Shown here: piece after piece, positions 14,659-20,003 of the stretch | Layout of the letters: each line of letters starts with the position of its first letter | How positions within the stretch are numbered: the first letter of the stretch is position 1 | From: Planctomyces sp. | GTDB taxonomy: Bacteria > Planctomycetota > Planctomycetia > Planctomycetales > Planctomycetaceae | Direction of reading: 5' to 3' | Length of the DNA: 64,000 nt | Assembly (NCBI GenBank): GCA_016795105.1 | Contig: JAEUIH010000002.1 | Location: 124,001-188,000 of the forward strand | The notes under the pieces: generated by a model | Told to the model about the DNA's origin: nothing | The model's database searches: none | Seen by the model: only the letters and a program-made list of their open reading frames with translations | Position numbers and translations under genes: made by a program

Positions 14659-14931
14659 ATGACTCAGGCAATTGTGGACCCTTCAGAATTGAGGCGATTC
14701 GCCCAGTTGCTGCGACGTTTCGATGAAGAATTGAACGAAAAAACGGCCGCCGTTGCCGGGCAGCTCAGTCAGTTGGGACAGTCGTGGCGCGATCAGGAAC
14801 ATCAGCGGTTCGCGGAGGAATTTGTTGCCAACATGAAAGCGCTGGGACGCTTTGTTGAATCCAACGAGCAGTTTATTCCGTATCTGCTTCGCAAGGCGCA
14901 ACTGATCGAAGAATATCTGCAGCAGCAATAA
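14659..14931 (+). CDS. WXG100-like small helical protein
   Basis: A 90-residue protein predicted to be almost entirely alpha-helical. A central LGQSWRDQEHQRFAEEF (about residues 38-54) matches the WXG100/ESAT-6 pattern LxxxWxGxAxxxF at the hairpin turn, except that the Gly of W-x-G is Asp (WRD). The C-terminal half ends in AQLIEEYLQQQ, resembling the amphipathic C-terminal helix of WXG100 proteins. Length and shape fit the family, and the gene heads an operon ending in an FtsK/SpoIIIE ATPase, the hallmark partner of WXG100 substrates. Family members are secreted substrates or structural partners of type VII systems. The assignment rests on pattern and context, not on an alignment. Confidence 0.65.
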   Translation: MTQAIVDPSELRRFAQLLRRFDEELNEKTAAVAGQLSQLGQSWRDQEHQRFAEEFVANMKALGRFVESNEQFIPYLLRKAQLIEEYLQQQ

Positions 14932-14944
14932 AAGGAGAGTGGTC

Positions 14945-15589
14945 GTGGCCGGTTCAGCAAACGTCACATCGCTCGATGCAGTCTGTAATTTCACAGCCGC
15001 TCTGATCGCCTTTCATTCCGAAGCAAGCCTATGCCTCACTGCAATGGATGCGCAGCTTCGACAGATTCAATTATGGCTTGAACGTGATCGTCCGGTATTC
15101 TGGAAACGGGAAGTCGAAGATTGTACTCGCAATGTGTCAGAGGCAAGAATTCGGCTGCATCAATGTCGAATGCGTCGCGTCGGAGACTTTCGCCCCACAT
15201 GCTTCGAAGAACAAAAGGATCTCGAACAGGCCAAAAGAAACCTTGACTTCGCTCAGCATCAGGTCCCGACTGTTAAGCACTGGCTGATTGCCACCGGGCA
15301 TGAAGCGAATGAGTTTCATGGCAGAGCAAGTCAACTGGTTCAGTTTCTTCATCGAGATATTCCACATCTGATGAGTATCCTGAAGACCACGATTGAACGG
15401 ATTTCTTCGTATGCTGCAATCGAAGCACCTGCGGGACACGTAAATCTTTCTGCGATTCAGCAGCTTGCCGCATCCATGGAAAAGACGCTTGCGGGACTTG
15501 CTGCATCTGATCTTTCAGGTCCTGAATCCGTGGATCCGGCCAGTGATTCTTCTCAGGGAGCCGGATTTGAGTCCGGGCAGGAACTATGA
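14945..15589 (+). CDS. Helical protein of the type VII-like operon, unknown function
   Basis: About 214 residues, starting at GTG 14945, which AAAGGAG (14931-14937) places at ideal spacing; a GTG at 14939 is too close to that site. The protein is mostly helical with coiled-coil-like charge patterns (residues 20-110) and a low-complexity acidic Ser/Gly-rich tail. No membrane segment or signal peptide is seen. It starts 14 nt after the WXG100-like gene, and its stop overlaps the start of the next gene (ATGA), so translation is probably coupled. No family is recognised. A chaperone, adaptor or second substrate of the secretion ATPase is plausible by context only. Confidence 0.75.
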   Translation: MAGSANVTSLDAVCNFTAALIAFHSEASLCLTAMDAQLRQIQLWLERDRPVFWKREVEDCTRNVSEARIRLHQCRMRRVGDFRPTCFEEQKDLEQAKRNLDFAQHQVPTVKHWLIATGHEANEFHGRASQLVQFLHRDIPHLMSILKTTIERISSYAAIEAPAGHVNLSAIQQLAASMEKTLAGLAASDLSGPESVDPASDSSQGAGFESGQEL

Positions 15590-15834
15590 AACGAGTTGAT
15601 GTACTTTCTCCGGCAGCTCGTCTTGAAGACGCTACGAAGCAGTTGCTGGCTGCCTGGAATGTGACGAAGGAGCACTGGTCGGATCCGGTGAGTCGCAAAG
15701 TAGAAGACGAATACCTCATACCTCTTCAGGCTCAGATTCGCTGTCTGCTGGATGCGACCACCAAGTTGGCAGAAGTCCTGCGAACCGCTGAGCACGAATG
15801 TCAGCACCCTCGGGAACGACGGTTTATGCTGTGA
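15586..15834 (+). CDS. Small helical protein of the type VII-like operon
   Basis: An 82-residue protein whose ATG overlaps the preceding stop as ATGA. It is predicted to form a helical hairpin, with AAWNVTKEHWSD near residues 22-33 placed where WXG100 proteins have their turn, followed by a long amphipathic helix containing LDATTKLAEVLRTAEHE. This could be a second, diverged WXG100-type protein, so that the operon would encode a substrate pair like EsxA/EsxB, but the motif is too weak to be sure. It contains no signal peptide or membrane segment. The FtsK-like ATPase gene follows 47 nt later. Confidence 0.7.
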   Translation: MKRVDVLSPAARLEDATKQLLAAWNVTKEHWSDPVSRKVEDEYLIPLQAQIRCLLDATTKLAEVLRTAEHECQHPRERRFML

Positions 15835-15881
15835 GCAATTTGAGATTGGCAAGACAGCCAGTTTTTTGAAAGTACATTTCA

Positions 15882-18800
15882 ATGCAGAATCTGAAGTCAC
15901 ATCTGAGCAGTACGATTGAACAGCTTGAGATGATTCGTGAACGCTGTCTGCGGCGTCGAAGCGAAGTTTCCCAGATTCAGCAGGATGCGGCGAAGCGTGC
16001 CGGAGTTCTGCATGATACTCTTGAGCAACTCAACGAGCGACATCTGAGTATCCTGAAGGAGCTTGAAGAGCGACATCATTTCGACTTTCAGACTCAGTTT
16101 GAACAGCTGGAACTGGAAGTTCAGCAGCAGGTGCATGCGGAACGAACAGAAGGGGACCGAAGGCTTGCCGTGTCGCAGGTGAAGTTTGAAGAATCGCGTC
16201 GCGAGCTGCAGAAGGCGCTGGACCATGAGTTGTGGGTGATTCAGTCAATCTGTGATGAATCCGGTGAAGACACACCCGTGTTTCTGCATTCACGTGCTGA
16301 AGAGCTGTTCGACAATCAACTTCGAGTTGTTAAAGAGTCACTTGATGATCTGACTCAACGACTCGAACAGACCGGTCAATATCTGCAGTCATGTCACGCC
16401 GGCACAGAAGCCACCTTGCCTCCCCATGATCACGACAAAGGGAATCGCGATCACTATTACCAGGTTCTTGAACACAGTTCTGCAGAAGCCATGAAGGCTG
16501 CTCAGGAGATTGACTCGTTTGTCGTCCCTCCATGGATTCAGGGGCTGCGGATGCCGGTAATCGGCCTGATTCTCACTCTGGTGGGTACGGTTGGGGTGGC
16601 TGCCGTGCGGTCGGATCTGCGTTCGTTTGTGAATCCTGAGATTTCAAAGCCGGACTGGAACTGGCTGGGTGTCAGTGCTCTGATCGCAGGAGGCACGACG
16701 GTACTTTTGCTGACTGTTATGCTGGTGCTGACACAACAAAAGCTGAGAAGCCGGTTTGCACGCATGCTTCAGGCGACAGCGAATGCACGGTCAGCCGCCG
16801 AATCGTGGGAGAGCCTGTCTCGCCGAGAGCTTCAGAAGCTTGACGCGAATGCTCAGGCGTGGCTTGCGGATATGACAGCTCGGCGAGAACGACGCGTCGA
16901 AATACTGAAAGCCAGCACTGCTGAGAATATCGCCCGGCTCACTGAGGAGTTTCAGACACGGCAGGCCGATATCCGCAGTCAGGTGGCTGGTCGCACTTCT
17001 TCGCTTCTGAATCAATGGAGTCAACAGAACGAAGCTGCGGAAGCGAACCGAGCGGCCGGACTGCTGAGATTGCGAACTGAGCAGGCGACAGAACTCAGAA
17101 AGAAGCAAACGCAGATTTCCGATGATCTGACTGCAAATGAAAACCAGCGTGCAGCCGCCGTTGAATCTGTGATGTCCGGCTGGAATGAAGAACTTCGTCA
17201 TGCTGAGGATCTGGTTCGCTCAACTCGACTTCTGGCCGAAGGGTTGACTCGCTGGCCGACATTAAGCAGTGGTGTTTGGCAACCGCCTCGACAGTTGCCG
17301 GCCAGCCTGCCAGTTGGAGACATATTGTGTTCATTGCCTGCTCCTCCGGCGGACCAGGCTTTGGAAGAACAAAATCATTCGTGTATAGAACTCCCGGCTT
17401 TACTTCGCTTTCCTCAGGAGACCAGCCTCTGCATCGAACACAGTGCCGATGGAAGAGAAGCCGCACTGCAGCTTGTTCGTTCAGTATTACTCAAACTGCT
17501 CACGACGATTCCTCCGGGACGAGTTCAGTTCACGCTGATTGACCCTGTTGGGCTGGGGCAAAGCTTCTCTGCGATGATGCACCTGGCGGACTTTGATGAG
17601 TTGTTGATCAGTAATCGAATCTGGACAGAGTCGACTCAGATTCGTGAACGGCTGCAGAAAGTGGCAGAACACATGGAGAATGTGTTTCAGACATATCTTC
17701 GCAGTGAGTTTGAAACGATTGAACAGTACAACGAGTCGGCGGGAGAGGTTGCGGAGCCGTATCATTTTGTTGTCGTTGCCGGGTTTCCACAGGCATTCAG
17801 TGAAGAATCTGCACGACATCTGACCAGTATCCTGACAAGTGGACCACGCTGTGGTGTTCATACTCTGTTGACGTGGTCTCCCGACCAGGCTGCTCCTCGA
17901 ACCTTTGATGTGAATGATCTGCTGCAGCATTGTGTGCGATTCAAAGTGCATGGCGGCAAAGTTGTTCCCGTCACGTCCAGTCCGCCATCCGGAAAATCTG
18001 GTTCTGTCAGTGCCACACATCCAGCGATCGAATTTGAGCCGCTGACGTCACCAGGTTCTGCCGAATATGTATCGGTGGTTCGTGCTGTTGGGGAGCAGTC
18101 ACGAAATGCGCGTCGTGTTGAAGTGTCCTTCACCCGGATTGCACCTCGCACAGAAGAGATCTGGACGCATTCCACGGCCGATGGCGTCAATCTTGCAATC
18201 GGTCGAGCGGGTGCTGCCAGGCTGCAGTTTATGAGGCTTGGAAAAGGGACAAGTCAGCACGTCCTGATCGCCGGGAAGACAGGTTCCGGAAAGTCCACAC
18301 TGTTGCACATTCTGATTACGAATCTTGCACTACATTACAGTCCGTCGGAAATTCAGTTCTACCTGATTGACTTCAAGAAGGGTGTCGAGTTTCGTACCTA
18401 TGCATCTAATCACCTGCCGCATGCACGTGTTGTGGCGATCGAGAGTGATCGTGAGTTTGGCCTGAGTGTTCTCGAACGTCTGGACGAAGTTCTGCAGGAG
18501 CGTGGTGACCTGTTTCGAAGTCGCGGCGTACAGGATCTTCCTTCGTTTCGACGCCAGTCCCCGGGCGAAGAAATGCCTCGGTTGTTGCTGTTGATCGACG
18601 AGTTTCAGGAGTTCTTTGTTGCGGAAGACCGAGTTTCGTCACGGGCATCGCTGCTTCTGGACCGGCTGATTCGCCAGGGGCGAGCATTCGGGATTCATGT
18701 TGTTTTGGGATCTCAGACGCTCGGCGGAGCGTACTCACTTGCAAGGAGTACGCTGGGACAGGTTGCCGTTCGAATTGCGTTGCAGTGCAGTGAGAGTGAT

Positions 18801-20003
18801 GCTCACCTGATTCTGAGCGAAGATAATTCAGCTGCGCGGCTGCTGACGCGTCCCGGGGAAGCGATCTACAATGATGCCAACGGGCTGTTGGAAGGGAACC
18901 ACCCGTTTCAGGTCGCGTGGCTCGATGAAGAGCGTCGAGAACAGGCAATTACAGAAATGTTGGCTGTTTCCGCGGCGAAGTCATTCAGTCATCCGGGCAG
19001 AATGGTGGTCTTTGAAGGGAATGTGCCTCCCGCTGTTGAACTCTGCGAACCTCTGAATGACTGGATGAAGATGCCCGTGCATCCGGAAGTCGATGGTATC
19101 GCTGGTGTTGCTCCGGAATTGAGCCTGTGGCTCGGAGAGCCCGTTGCAATTGCTGCTCCAACAACTCTGAACCTGCGTCGAGCGACCGGTCAGAATCTCT
19201 TGATCGTGGGACAGGACACCAGTGATGTGGATACGATGCTCGTGATGTCGGCGGTCGCATGCAGCCGCAGGTCAGTTGTCAATGGCACAGGAACGCGTGC
19301 GTCACAACTGATCCTTCTTCATGATGGTCGCGATCGCGAATCGCTGGCTCGGCTTCGCGAACATTTCGCACTTTTGCCTCCTGAAGCAACTCGAATCTGC
19401 GGTCTGTCGGAATGTGATCAGGTGCTGGGTGAGCTGCATCAGCTTCTGACGCAGAGGGAAGAACGTGGAGCGGATGGAGAACTGTCCCTCGTATTTGCTG
19501 TTCGGGACATCGGTCAGTTCCGCAGCCTTCGCAAAGAGGATGATGAATTCAGTCTTGGAAGTTTCGGTACCCCGAAAGCAGCGACGCCCGCTGGATTGTT
19601 TGCTGATCTCGTTCGTCGTGGCTCTGCAGTCGGAATTCATGTGATTGTGTGGGCTGATACATTCAGCAATGCAATGCGATGGCTGTCGAACAGCCTGTTG
19701 AGAGAATTCGAAAACCGTGTCGCGTTTCGAATGAACCAAACGGACTCGGCCAGTCTCGTAGATACTCCGGTGGCCTCCACGCTGGTGCCTGGACGAGCAA
19801 TCCTGTACCGGGATCAGACCGGAACAGCAGAGAAATTTCGTCCATTTGCGTGGCCGACATCTGTCTGGCTCGGCAGCACTGTTGCTGTCCGTGGCGTTGT
19901 GGTGGCGGGTAACACTGTCTCGGCCGCCAGGGATCACGTCACTCACAACGTTGATGTACAGAATGACGGCGAGCTGGATATCGACTCGTTCATGATTGAG
20001 TAA
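15882..20003 (+). CDS. FtsK/SpoIIIE-family ATPase, EccC/EssC-like
   Basis: A 1373-residue membrane-anchored ATPase. Residues 1-215 are coiled coil. Two membrane helices lie near 222-241 and 260-284, and a second coiled coil spans about 290-450. Three ATPase-like modules follow. D1 (about 513-700) lacks a Walker A. D2 (about 760-1020) has Walker A GKTGSGKST (about 797-805), Walker B LLLLIDEF (about 898) and the FtsK-type GIHVVLGSQTLGG sensor region. D3 (about 1090-1330) has a degenerate loop, VGQDTSDVDT. Three FtsK modules after two membrane helices is the plan of EccC/EssC, the motor of type VII secretion. No DNA-binding gamma domain as in FtsK is visible. The long N-terminal coiled coil before the membrane helices is unusual. 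Confidence 0.88.
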   Translation: MQNLKSHLSSTIEQLEMIRERCLRRRSEVSQIQQDAAKRAGVLHDTLEQLNERHLSILKELEERHHFDFQTQFEQLELEVQQQVHAERTEGDRRLAVSQVKFEESRRELQKALDHELWVIQSICDESGEDTPVFLHSRAEELFDNQLRVVKESLDDLTQRLEQTGQYLQSCHAGTEATLPPHDHDKGNRDHYYQVLEHSSAEAMKAAQEIDSFVVPPWIQGLRMPVIGLILTLVGTVGVAAVRSDLRSFVNPEISKPDWNWLGVSALIAGGTTVLLLTVMLVLTQQKLRSRFARMLQATANARSAAESWESLSRRELQKLDANAQAWLADMTARRERRVEILKASTAENIARLTEEFQTRQADIRSQVAGRTSSLLNQWSQQNEAAEANRAAGLLRLRTEQATELRKKQTQISDDLTANENQRAAAVESVMSGWNEELRHAEDLVRSTRLLAEGLTRWPTLSSGVWQPPRQLPASLPVGDILCSLPAPPADQALEEQNHSCIELPALLRFPQETSLCIEHSADGREAALQLVRSVLLKLLTTIPPGRVQFTLIDPVGLGQSFSAMMHLADFDELLISNRIWTESTQIRERLQKVAEHMENVFQTYLRSEFETIEQYNESAGEVAEPYHFVVVAGFPQAFSEESARHLTSILTSGPRCGVHTLLTWSPDQAAPRTFDVNDLLQHCVRFKVHGGKVVPVTSSPPSGKSGSVSATHPAIEFEPLTSPGSAEYVSVVRAVGEQSRNARRVEVSFTRIAPRTEEIWTHSTADGVNLAIGRAGAARLQFMRLGKGTSQHVLIAGKTGSGKSTLLHILITNLALHYSPSEIQFYLIDFKKGVEFRTYASNHLPHARVVAIESDREFGLSVLERLDEVLQERGDLFRSRGVQDLPSFRRQSPGEEMPRLLLLIDEFQEFFVAEDRVSSRASLLLDRLIRQGRAFGIHVVLGSQTLGGAYSLARSTLGQVAVRIALQCSESDAHLILSEDNSAARLLTRPGEAIYNDANGLLEGNHPFQVAWLDEERREQAITEMLAVSAAKSFSHPGRMVVFEGNVPPAVELCEPLNDWMKMPVHPEVDGIAGVAPELSLWLGEPVAIAAPTTLNLRRATGQNLLIVGQDTSDVDTMLVMSAVACSRRSVVNGTGTRASQLILLHDGRDRESLARLREHFALLPPEATRICGLSECDQVLGELHQLLTQREERGADGELSLVFAVRDIGQFRSLRKEDDEFSLGSFGTPKAATPAGLFADLVRRGSAVGIHVIVWADTFSNAMRWLSNSLLREFENRVAFRMNQTDSASLVDTPVASTLVPGRAILYRDQTGTAEKFRPFAWPTSVWLGSTVAVRGVVVAGNTVSAARDHVTHNVDVQNDGELDIDSFMIE

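What the first reader, a model, noticed from the sequence alone, without database searches (positions are those of the whole stretch)
14659..20003. Compact type VII (ESX/Ess)-like operon in a planctomycete
Four tightly spaced genes begin with a WXG100-like protein, pass through two helical unknowns (one coupled by ATGA) and end in a membrane-anchored ATPase with three FtsK/SpoIIIE modules. No EccB, EccD, EccE, MycP, EssA, EssB or EsaB homologue is visible. The host is diderm, unlike the classic monoderm or mycobacterial hosts of type VII secretion. The set may be a minimal or new branch of WXG100 export, or a different use of the motor. Context and motifs are seen directly; secretion is inference.
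Basis: partly seen in the sequence, partly recalled or inferred. Interest (0 to 1): 0.8.

Follow-up and report, generated by a model that had tools for sequence, protein, structure and literature searches.

The report
WXG100-like proteins with an EccC-like motor
A planctomycete carries a four-gene set, three small hairpin proteins of the ESAT-6 kind and a membrane-anchored motor like that of type VII secretion, which relatives that have it keep as a set even when the genes are scattered; it is a little-known variant of a system noted before only in passing, and what it does is untested.

Summary
In detail: four genes (14659-20003, +) encode a WXG100-family hairpin (g1), a 216-aa helical protein (g2), an 82-aa protein (g3) and a 1373-aa ATPase with two predicted TM helices and three FtsK-like modules, only the middle one with a Walker A. 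New here: g2 and g3 look WXG100-like too. Among about 16,450 ORFs their profiles' top 50 non-self hits are g1 in 49 and 50 cases, and g2 resembles a g1 hairpin with a lengthened tip. The set is a unit: 56 of the 64 genomes (of 392 in the phylum) holding any of g1, g2 or ATPase hold all three, though g1 and ATPase are far apart or on different contigs in 16 of 57. EccB and YukC were found in 0 of 40 genomes. The ATPase is EccC/EssC-like in structure but lies outside the EccC and FtsK sequences in a small tree. Precedents exist: a 2012 footnote naming planctomycetes, a 2016 Helicobacter paper, and soluble relatives in the 2024 CoCoNuT paper. I file it as a chromosomal, membrane-anchored variant of that stand-alone WXG100-FtsK kind. 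Export is plausible by analogy but unproven; g1 lacks the usual YxxxD/E signal.

The parts
14659..14931 (+). g1: WXG100-family hairpin protein, 90 aa, with W43-R-D45 in place of WXG
   Evidence: Pfam WXG100 28.5 bits, cut-off 27.3; 38 of 38 orthologues match at E up to 0.1; profile matches PDB 3fx7 (E 1.1e-11) and HP0062, 2gts (E 2.7e-11)
14939..15589 (+). g2: 216 aa (GTG start), long helical hairpin (helices 12-78 and 89-161) plus a short helix and a loose tail; resembles a WXG100 hairpin with a lengthened tip that carries two cysteines
   Evidence: AlphaFold2 pLDDT 85.8, pTM 0.67; 49 of its profile's top 50 non-self hits are g1; tip cysteines in 80 rows: 44 both, 26 neither, 10 second only, 0 first only
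15586..15834 (+). g3: 82 aa, divergent WXG100-like protein with W31-S-D33
   Evidence: W-x-D in 51 of 51 rows; hhalign with g1 over the W-x-D, probability 71%; 6 of 51 rows match Pfam WXG100 at E up to 0.1, best 5.8e-4; 50 of its profile's top 50 non-self hits are g1; best PDB match EsxA only at E 0.024
15882..20003 (+). EccC/EssC-like ATPase, 1373 aa
   Evidence: Foldseek best match EccC 4nh0, E 1.1e-29, against FtsK 7.9e-12; EccC_b 108 bits, EssC 101, FtsK 26
15882..16547 (+). ATPase N-terminal, poorly conserved region (aa 1-222), judged helical from the sequence
   Evidence: 26-39% mean column identity in 50-residue blocks; aa 1-200 not modelled
16551..16727 (+). two predicted transmembrane segments (aa 224-242 and 264-282)
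   Evidence: Kyte-Doolittle; two segments in 88 of 97 aligned rows, one in 9 of 97
16728..17261 (+). helical arm between membrane and modules (aa 283-460)
   Evidence: long helices in the model, pLDDT 42-54 in part of it
17304..17981 (+). module D1, degenerate (aa about 475-700): conserved but no Walker A
18084..18920 (+). module D2, active (aa about 735-1013)
   Evidence: best FtsK/SpoIIIE stretch, aa 790-946; 70-92% mean column identity in 50-residue blocks
18273..18296 (+). Walker A GKTGSGKS (aa 798-805)
   Evidence: the only Walker A, in 97 of 97 rows
18999..19886 (+). module D3, degenerate (aa about 1040-1335)
   Evidence: EccC ATPases 2 and 3 (4n1a) match over 631 columns

Best explanation
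It is a chromosomal, membrane-anchored variant of the stand-alone WXG100-FtsK systems of diderm bacteria (the HP0062/HP0066 and TerY-P/CoCoNuT-associated kind). Shown by sequence and model: an EccC/EssC-like motor with two predicted membrane helices and one active ATPase module; three small helical proteins that look like one WXG100-like group, one of them (g2) with a long tip; joint keeping of the set across the phylum, also when scattered. Inferred: the motor assembles as a ring in the cytoplasmic membrane; g1 and g3 pair through their helices, as EsxA and EsxB do; the degenerate modules D1 and D3 bind the hairpins while D2 burns ATP; g2 is the long carrier or cargo, brought to the motor by g1/g3 and moved into or through the cytoplasmic membrane. 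In some planctomycetes g2 ends in an Imm33-like domain, and in a Helicobacter plasmid version the protein in g2's place ends in a nuclease; in this window g2 ends in a short loose tail. How anything would cross the outer membrane is unknown.
For: The motor is EccC/EssC-like in structure and profile and outside the FtsK sequences. g1, g2 and g3 profiles find one another against about 16,450 background ORFs. g1 resembles HP0062 nearly over its full length. g2, g3 and full ATPase occur in exactly the same 29 of 40 genomes, g1 in 28 of those 29 plus one other genome; in the phylum 56 of 64 genomes holding any of g1, g2 or ATPase hold all three. Two membrane segments in 88 of 97 rows. The five g2 proteins with 190 or more residues after the hairpin (of 76) all have a C-terminal Imm33-like domain; on a Helicobacter plasmid a gene between WXG and ATPase ends in a colicin-DNase/WHH domain. 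Tip cysteines: the first never occurs without the second, 0 of 80, as expected if they pair outside the cytoplasm.
Against: No test of export. YxxxD/E is absent from g1 in 38 of 38 rows, present in g3 in 1 of 51 rows and near the C-terminus of g2 in 4 of 81 distinct ORFs. g1 gave one match per genome and is strongly conserved, which suits a machine part better than an effector. EccB and YukC 0 of 40, no YukD in the own genome. Ten of 80 g2 rows keep only the second cysteine. hhalign gives no clear link of g1 to g2 (probability 3%) or g3 to g2 (1%). Homology of the plasmid proteins to g2 is weak: 20.6 bits (L145), 18.4 (L146), 11.2 (L144).
Confidence: 0.5

Rival explanations
1. Not an exporter: the hairpins are permanent subunits of a membrane-bound motor that works inside the cell, for instance as an envelope-associated defence or stress device, as proposed for the TerY-P/CoCoNuT relatives.
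For: Relatives sit beside vWA, CARF, PP2C and kinase genes on a Caballeronia plasmid and near TerD on a Rhodococcus plasmid; export signals mostly missing; g1 conserved and found once per genome.
Against: In the 80 loci clustered no neighbour family stood at a fixed place in more than a few loci, apart from ORFs antisense to the set (neighbours were not annotated). The genes lie scattered in part of the genomes, and the motor carries membrane helices that the CoCoNuT relatives lack (PMC11090510, section 10 read).
Confidence: 0.27
2. A true minimal type VII secretion system whose partner proteins are encoded elsewhere or are too diverged to see.
For: EccC-like motor, WXG100-family protein and a second hairpin.
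Against: EccB and YukC in 0 of 40 genomes with working controls; no YukD in the own genome; D1, active in EssC according to PMC11090510, has no Walker A here; no W-x-G and no YxxxD/E in g1.
Confidence: 0.15
3. A DNA translocase with helical accessory proteins.
For: The active module belongs to the FtsK/SpoIIIE family.
Against: FtsK profile 26 bits against 108 for EccC; FtsK separate in the tree; the own genome has another, separate protein that was used as its FtsK (G000:C111); WXG100 partner.
Confidence: 0.05
4. A mobile conflict cassette parked in the chromosome.
For: Called mobile in PMC3482391 and, citing an earlier paper, in PMC11090510; distant relatives of the ATPase on plasmids, four of the five fetched with a WXG-like neighbour by profile (79, 52, 40 and 28 bits).
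Against: A scan of viral contigs found no g1 relative and only 4 weak module-sized ATPase matches of 25-30% identity; with the single g1 sequence only 1 of 72,556 plasmid records matched, at 37.5% identity; phage records gave 186 of 50,697 with some ATPase match, none covering 80%; genes scattered yet kept together as a set. Trees of the set against species trees were not made.
Confidence: 0.03

Closest known systems
Solo WXG with YueA-like three-module ATPase (a table footnote in PMC3482391; passages read)
   Same: Names planctomycetes; [quoted passage not shown]
   Different: The footnote calls them mobile versions of T7SS; here the genes are chromosomal, in part scattered, and kept as a set; g2, g3 and membrane helices are not mentioned in the passages read.
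EssC-like extension of Type III-A CoCoNuTs (PMC11090510, section 10 read)
   Same: Only the central module active, long N-terminal coiled coil, two WXG100 proteins of which one lacks WxG, and a coiled-coil protein.
   Different: There no TM helices and the coiled coil is fused to a D-ExK nuclease, with vWA and other defence genes; here two TM segments, no nuclease domain found in g2, no such neighbours among those scanned.
Helicobacter pylori HP0062/HP0066 WXG100-FtsK genes (PMC4978471, passages read; PDB 2gts)
   Same: Diderm host; the g1 profile matches HP0062 (2gts) over 1-85 at E 2.7e-11 and 3fx7 over 1-88 at E 1.1e-11, W-R-D included (that 3fx7 is HP0062 too is recalled).
   Different: There an HNH/ENDO VII nuclease and a DnaK homologue are in the co-occurring clusters; HP0066 itself was not compared here.
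Type VII secretion, T7SSa-T7SSj (PMC11217815, abstract and Discussion read)
   Same: EccC/EssC-type membrane ATPase plus a WXG100 protein.
   Different: Described in Gram-positive phyla, with four NTPase domains and mostly EsaB/TsxB; here three modules seen, one active, no EccB or YukC.

Membership tests
Type VII secretion system | EccC/EssC-type ATPase anchored in the membrane | tested here: met
   Foldseek EccC 1.1e-29, EssC 3.4e-19; two TM segments in 88 of 97 rows (hydropathy only)
Type VII secretion system | WXG100 protein with the W-x-G motif | tested here: not met
   WXG100 by Pfam but W-x-D in 38 of 38 and W-x-G in 0 of 38
Type VII secretion system | C-terminal YxxxD/E export signal | tested here: not met
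   g1 0 of 38; g3 1 of 51 and g2 4 of 81 distinct ORFs
Type VII secretion system | EccB or EssB/YukC partner | tested here: not met
   0 of 40 genomes each; controls positive in B. subtilis for YukC and in 2 of 2 plasmids for EccB, whose built-in control was silent
Type VII secretion system | EsaB/YukD ubiquitin-like protein | tested here: not met
   none in the own genome; 5 of 40 genomes have one
Type VII secretion system | EccD (beyond the YukD-like domain), EccE, MycP, EssA | not tested
Type VII secretion system | secretion of the WXG100 protein | not testable with these tools
   needs proteomics
Stand-alone WXG100-FtsK system of diderms | three FtsK-like modules, only the central one active | tested here: met
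   one Walker A in 97 of 97 rows; model and matches
Stand-alone WXG100-FtsK system of diderms | WXG100 protein beside it, and a second without WxG | tested here: met
   g1 by Pfam, g3 by profiles; note that g1 itself has W-x-D
Stand-alone WXG100-FtsK system of diderms | long N-terminal coiled coil on the ATPase | tested here: inconclusive
   long helices in the modelled part; aa 1-200 not modelled
Nuclease-fused, TM-less CoCoNuT branch | coiled-coil protein fused to a nuclease; no TM helices | tested here: not met
   no Pfam family in g2; two TM segments in the ATPase
DNA translocase FtsK/SpoIIIE | ATPase groups with FtsK | tested here: not met
   tree of 39 domain sequences

The most novel reading that the evidence does not exclude
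Planctomycetota keep a separate, vertically inherited class of WXG100 machine for a diderm envelope: a membrane-anchored motor with one working module that handles three hairpins of one family, the long-tipped one (g2) being a carrier equivalent to LXG or PPE proteins. The toxin- and nuclease-bearing plasmid versions would be offshoots of, or cousins to, this ordinary cellular machine. (Vertical inheritance is inferred from the scatter and joint keeping; no species-tree comparison was made.)
Probability: 0.3. Interest if true: 0.75.

Novelty: new variant of a known kind. Interest (0 to 1): 0.55.

Why it matters
The WXG100 proteins and motors described in the papers I read are mostly those of Gram-positive bacteria and mycobacteria. 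A set kept as a unit through a diderm phylum, without the partners tested and without a toxin domain, would show how small a core such a machine can have, and would offer a non-pathogenic place to ask whether WXG100 hairpins are cargo or machine parts. If all three small proteins belong to one group, the uncharacterised diderm systems gain a common anatomy.

Tried and rejected
DNA translocase: rejected on profile scores, structure and tree. Mobile cassette within Planctomycetota: little support. Conserved extra neighbours: ORFs of 100 aa or more in the 80 genome-contig loci were clustered; apart from the set itself the widest cluster spans 14 loci on both strands at -8.8 to +5.6 kb, and those of 8 loci at a fixed place lie antisense to the set. 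Promoter scan: 1 site against 2.3 expected; terminator-like sites 10 against 5.1 (sd 2.4), one 73 bases past the ATPase, not counted as evidence. Fold search with g2: only generic coiled coils, no E under 0.001, best Z 10.4, which for long helices may mean only a common arrangement; a LapA/LXG complex appears at E 0.57, not used. Profile search of PDB with g2: only weak, unrelated hits in the 60 of 155 shown. PADLOC: the ATPase matches SspH, mad8 and HerA models through the shared module, not taken as a defence assignment. Rfam and tRNA: nothing in the window. The C-terminal pattern HxxxD/ExxhxxxH occurs in 18 of 38 g1 rows and 9 of 51 g3 rows; in the three g1 matches printed it lay well before the C-terminus, so I gave it no weight.

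The Fisher p-values ignore kinship and are not quoted. In one search the g1 rows are related to each other, so 49 and 50 of 50 are not independent events; the background (16,564 six-frame ORFs of 60 codons or more, most of them not genes) held 84 g1, 94 g2 and 101 g3 ORFs, with repeats of the same contigs, and the small plasmid proteins labelled h were left out of the ranking (with them in, two plasmid proteins stand first and fifth for g2). In the phylum searches only the best 9, 13 and 2 first-look candidates per genome were scored, so copy numbers there are not reliable. One search kept the best 80 of at least 394 relatives.
Full report
Observation. The host is a planctomycete by its neighbours, a planctomycete cytochrome c with DUF1549 and DUF1553 and a DUF1501 protein upstream, and by its relatives. 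The window lies in an 8.9 Mb draft genome with one WXG100 match.

The ATPase. FtsK/SpoIIIE is the leading Pfam match (132.9 bits); NCBIfam gives EccC_b 108, EssC 101, EccC_a 91 and FtsK 26 bits, all far below those models' own cut-offs. PDB sequences: EccC 117.7 bits, EccC5 108.9, YukB 70.2, FtsK 47.6. An AlphaFold2 model of aa 201-1373 (pLDDT 81.0, pTM 0.63, 49 sequences) matches EccC 4nh0 (E 1.1e-29), EccC ATPases 2 and 3 (3.6e-21) and EssC (3.4e-19) before FtsK (7.9e-12); TM-scores are modest (0.30 by query, 0.39 by target for 4nh0). Exactly one Walker A occurs in 97 of 97 aligned rows (the window's own twice); two hydrophobic segments in 88 of 97 and one in 9 of 97. The active module is the most conserved part (70-92% mean column identity per block), and D1 stays conserved (52-76%) although it has lost its Walker A, which suggests a binding role (inference). 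A tree of 39 module sequences (23 planctomycete-type, 5 plasmid, 6 from 3 EccC proteins, 5 FtsK) puts the planctomycete-type and plasmid relatives outside EccC and FtsK; the split of FtsK plus EccC from the rest has support 0.889, and of these plus the Deinococcus plasmid protein 0.951. The tree is small, and EssC was not in it.

The three small proteins. g1 matches WXG100 in 38 of 38 members at E up to 0.1, and its profile finds PDB 3fx7 (E 1.1e-11) and HP0062, 2gts (2.7e-11), ahead of EsxB and EsxA entries. g3 has W-x-D in 51 of 51, matches g1 at hhalign probability 71% over the same motif, WXG100 weakly in 6 of 51, and EsxA in PDB only at E 0.024. g2 is modelled as two helices of about 70 residues in a hairpin (pLDDT 85.8). 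Against about 16,450 ORFs the g2 profile puts g1 in 49 of its first 50 non-self places and the g3 profile in 50 of 50; the g1 profile finds g3 in 34 and g2 in 15. The two alignments printed show the first and second helix of g1 matching the first and last part of g2, with about 65 residues of extra tip between them. Against this, hhalign of g1 with g2 is not significant (probability 3%), nor g3 with g2 (1%), so I call the link of g2 likely, not proven. In 80 distinct g2 rows the two tip cysteines are both present in 44, both absent in 26, the second alone in 10, the first alone in 0.

A unit, but not always an operon. In 40 genomes (own and 39 relatives) full ATPases (E under 1e-100), g2 and g3 occur in the same 29; g1 in 28 of these, missing in G025, and in G017 (78% complete) without the others; ten genomes lack all. 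In a draw of 392 genomes of the phylum g1 has 60, g2 61 (one of them, G045, weak at E 1.2e-4 with a stop) and the ATPase 60 genomes; 56 hold all three and 64 hold any; g3 was not searched there. The eight exceptions are seven genomes of 61-87% completeness and G025 (98%). Of 57 genomes with both g1 and ATPase placed, 41 have them within 12 kb, 6 far apart on one contig and 10 on different contigs, some of which may be mere contig breaks; in G007 g1, g2-g3 and the ATPase lie at 2.50, 4.30 and 5.92 Mb, and g1 stands alone in the 3.5 kb looked at. 51 of 111 fetched loci have all four in order, 40 of them among the 80 from genome contigs; some other loci are too short to tell, and several contigs were fetched twice. 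All nine listed genomes of genus g36 in the same family lack g1, g2 and ATPase, so the set is dispensable. ATPase identity is highest within the genus (55-56% for two genomes with a full match) and 39-52% in the family, but does not fall further in the class (39-46%, often over shorter stretches).

Missing partners. YukC: 0 of 40, control B. subtilis positive. EccB: 0 of 40; its built-in control was silent, so I searched two plasmids annotated with it and both rang. YukD: 5 of 40, none in the own genome; in G030 it lies about 250 kb from the set.

Relatives elsewhere. Plasmid records: 380 of 72,556 have some match to the ATPase, none covering 80% of it; phage records 186 of 50,697, none covering 80%. 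The Caballeronia plasmid has vWA, WXG100, a 436-aa protein, two small proteins, the ATPase, a CARF protein, vWA, PP2C and kinase, much like the layout that PMC11090510 describes for Type III-A CoCoNuTs. A Helicobacter plasmid has a WXG-like protein, a protein ending in a colicin-DNase/WHH domain, an SMI1/KNR4 protein, a 77-aa protein and the ATPase. In five planctomycete-type loci a long g2 ends in an Imm33-like domain above Pfam's cut-off; these five are all those of 76 g2 proteins with 190 or more residues after the hairpin. The profile link of g2 to the plasmid proteins is weak: 20.6 and 18.4 bits are first and fifth among non-self hits, the places between being g1 proteins; no Pfam family was found in the proteins of four of the five plasmids scanned at that place.

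What is in print. PMC3482391 (passages read) has a table footnote that names planctomycetes among lineages with solo WXG and a YueA-like ATPase with three domains, only the middle one active, and calls these mobile versions of T7SS. PMC4978471 (passages read) reports WxG and FtsK genes in H. pylori, with HP0062 and HP0066. PMC11090510 (section 10 read, passages) describes relatives without TM helices. PMC11217815 (abstract and Discussion read) sets out T7SSc-j in Gram-positive bacteria. Ten PMC searches were answered; apart from that footnote none of the titles and abstract starts listed pointed to a study of this planctomycete set, but I opened only six papers, and subscription papers and preprints are mostly not held. 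The essential-gene paper on Planctopirus limnophila (PMC10632474, passages only) does not mention WXG or type VII in its main text, and PMC3935865 (passages) does not mention planctomycetes.

Reading. The parts look like a type VII motor with its hairpins, but the set fails several defining tests of type VII secretion, so I do not file it there. It fits the stand-alone WXG100-FtsK kind and differs from its described members by membrane anchoring, lack of a nuclease domain, scatter in the chromosome and joint keeping. Export by g1/g3 of g2 is my best guess at about one half; a non-exporting membrane machine is the main rival.

Noticed in passing
L095, L106, L129, L133, L138: g2 proteins of 351-379 aa carry a C-terminal Imm33-like domain (PF24719); what it does there is unknown.
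   Followed up: partly
G034 and G038: Two copies of g2, g3 and the ATPase in each genome, but one g1.
   Followed up: no
L083 10761-12311: A second ATPase-like ORF of about 516 aa some 3 kb past the first.
   Followed up: no
G285, G370, G389, G337, G335, G117; G032; G045 (g2): Matches with one or two in-frame stops; decay, sequencing error or recoding not examined.
   Followed up: no
L106 and L109: Record titles say Cyanobacteria and Chthoniobacteraceae, yet L106 is very similar to the Phycisphaerales locus L095; mislabelled or mis-binned records are possible.
   Followed up: no
L032 9311-9643 and L093 5191-5400: A small protein with a shared stretch (MNSHD...) upstream of the ATPase where g1-g3 are not adjacent; not a g1-g3 profile match.
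   Followed up: no
L112, L113 and G015, G034, G038: YukD-like proteins in 5 of 40 genomes; in G030 and G038 they lie far from the set on the same contig. Perhaps ubiquitin-like conjugation systems (recalled, not tested).
   Followed up: no
window:5491-14525: Ordinary planctomycete genes beside the set: PSCyt1/PSCyt2/PSD1, DUF1501, and a DUF7133-HEAT-cytochrome c protein with an alpha/beta-hydrolase part.
   Followed up: no
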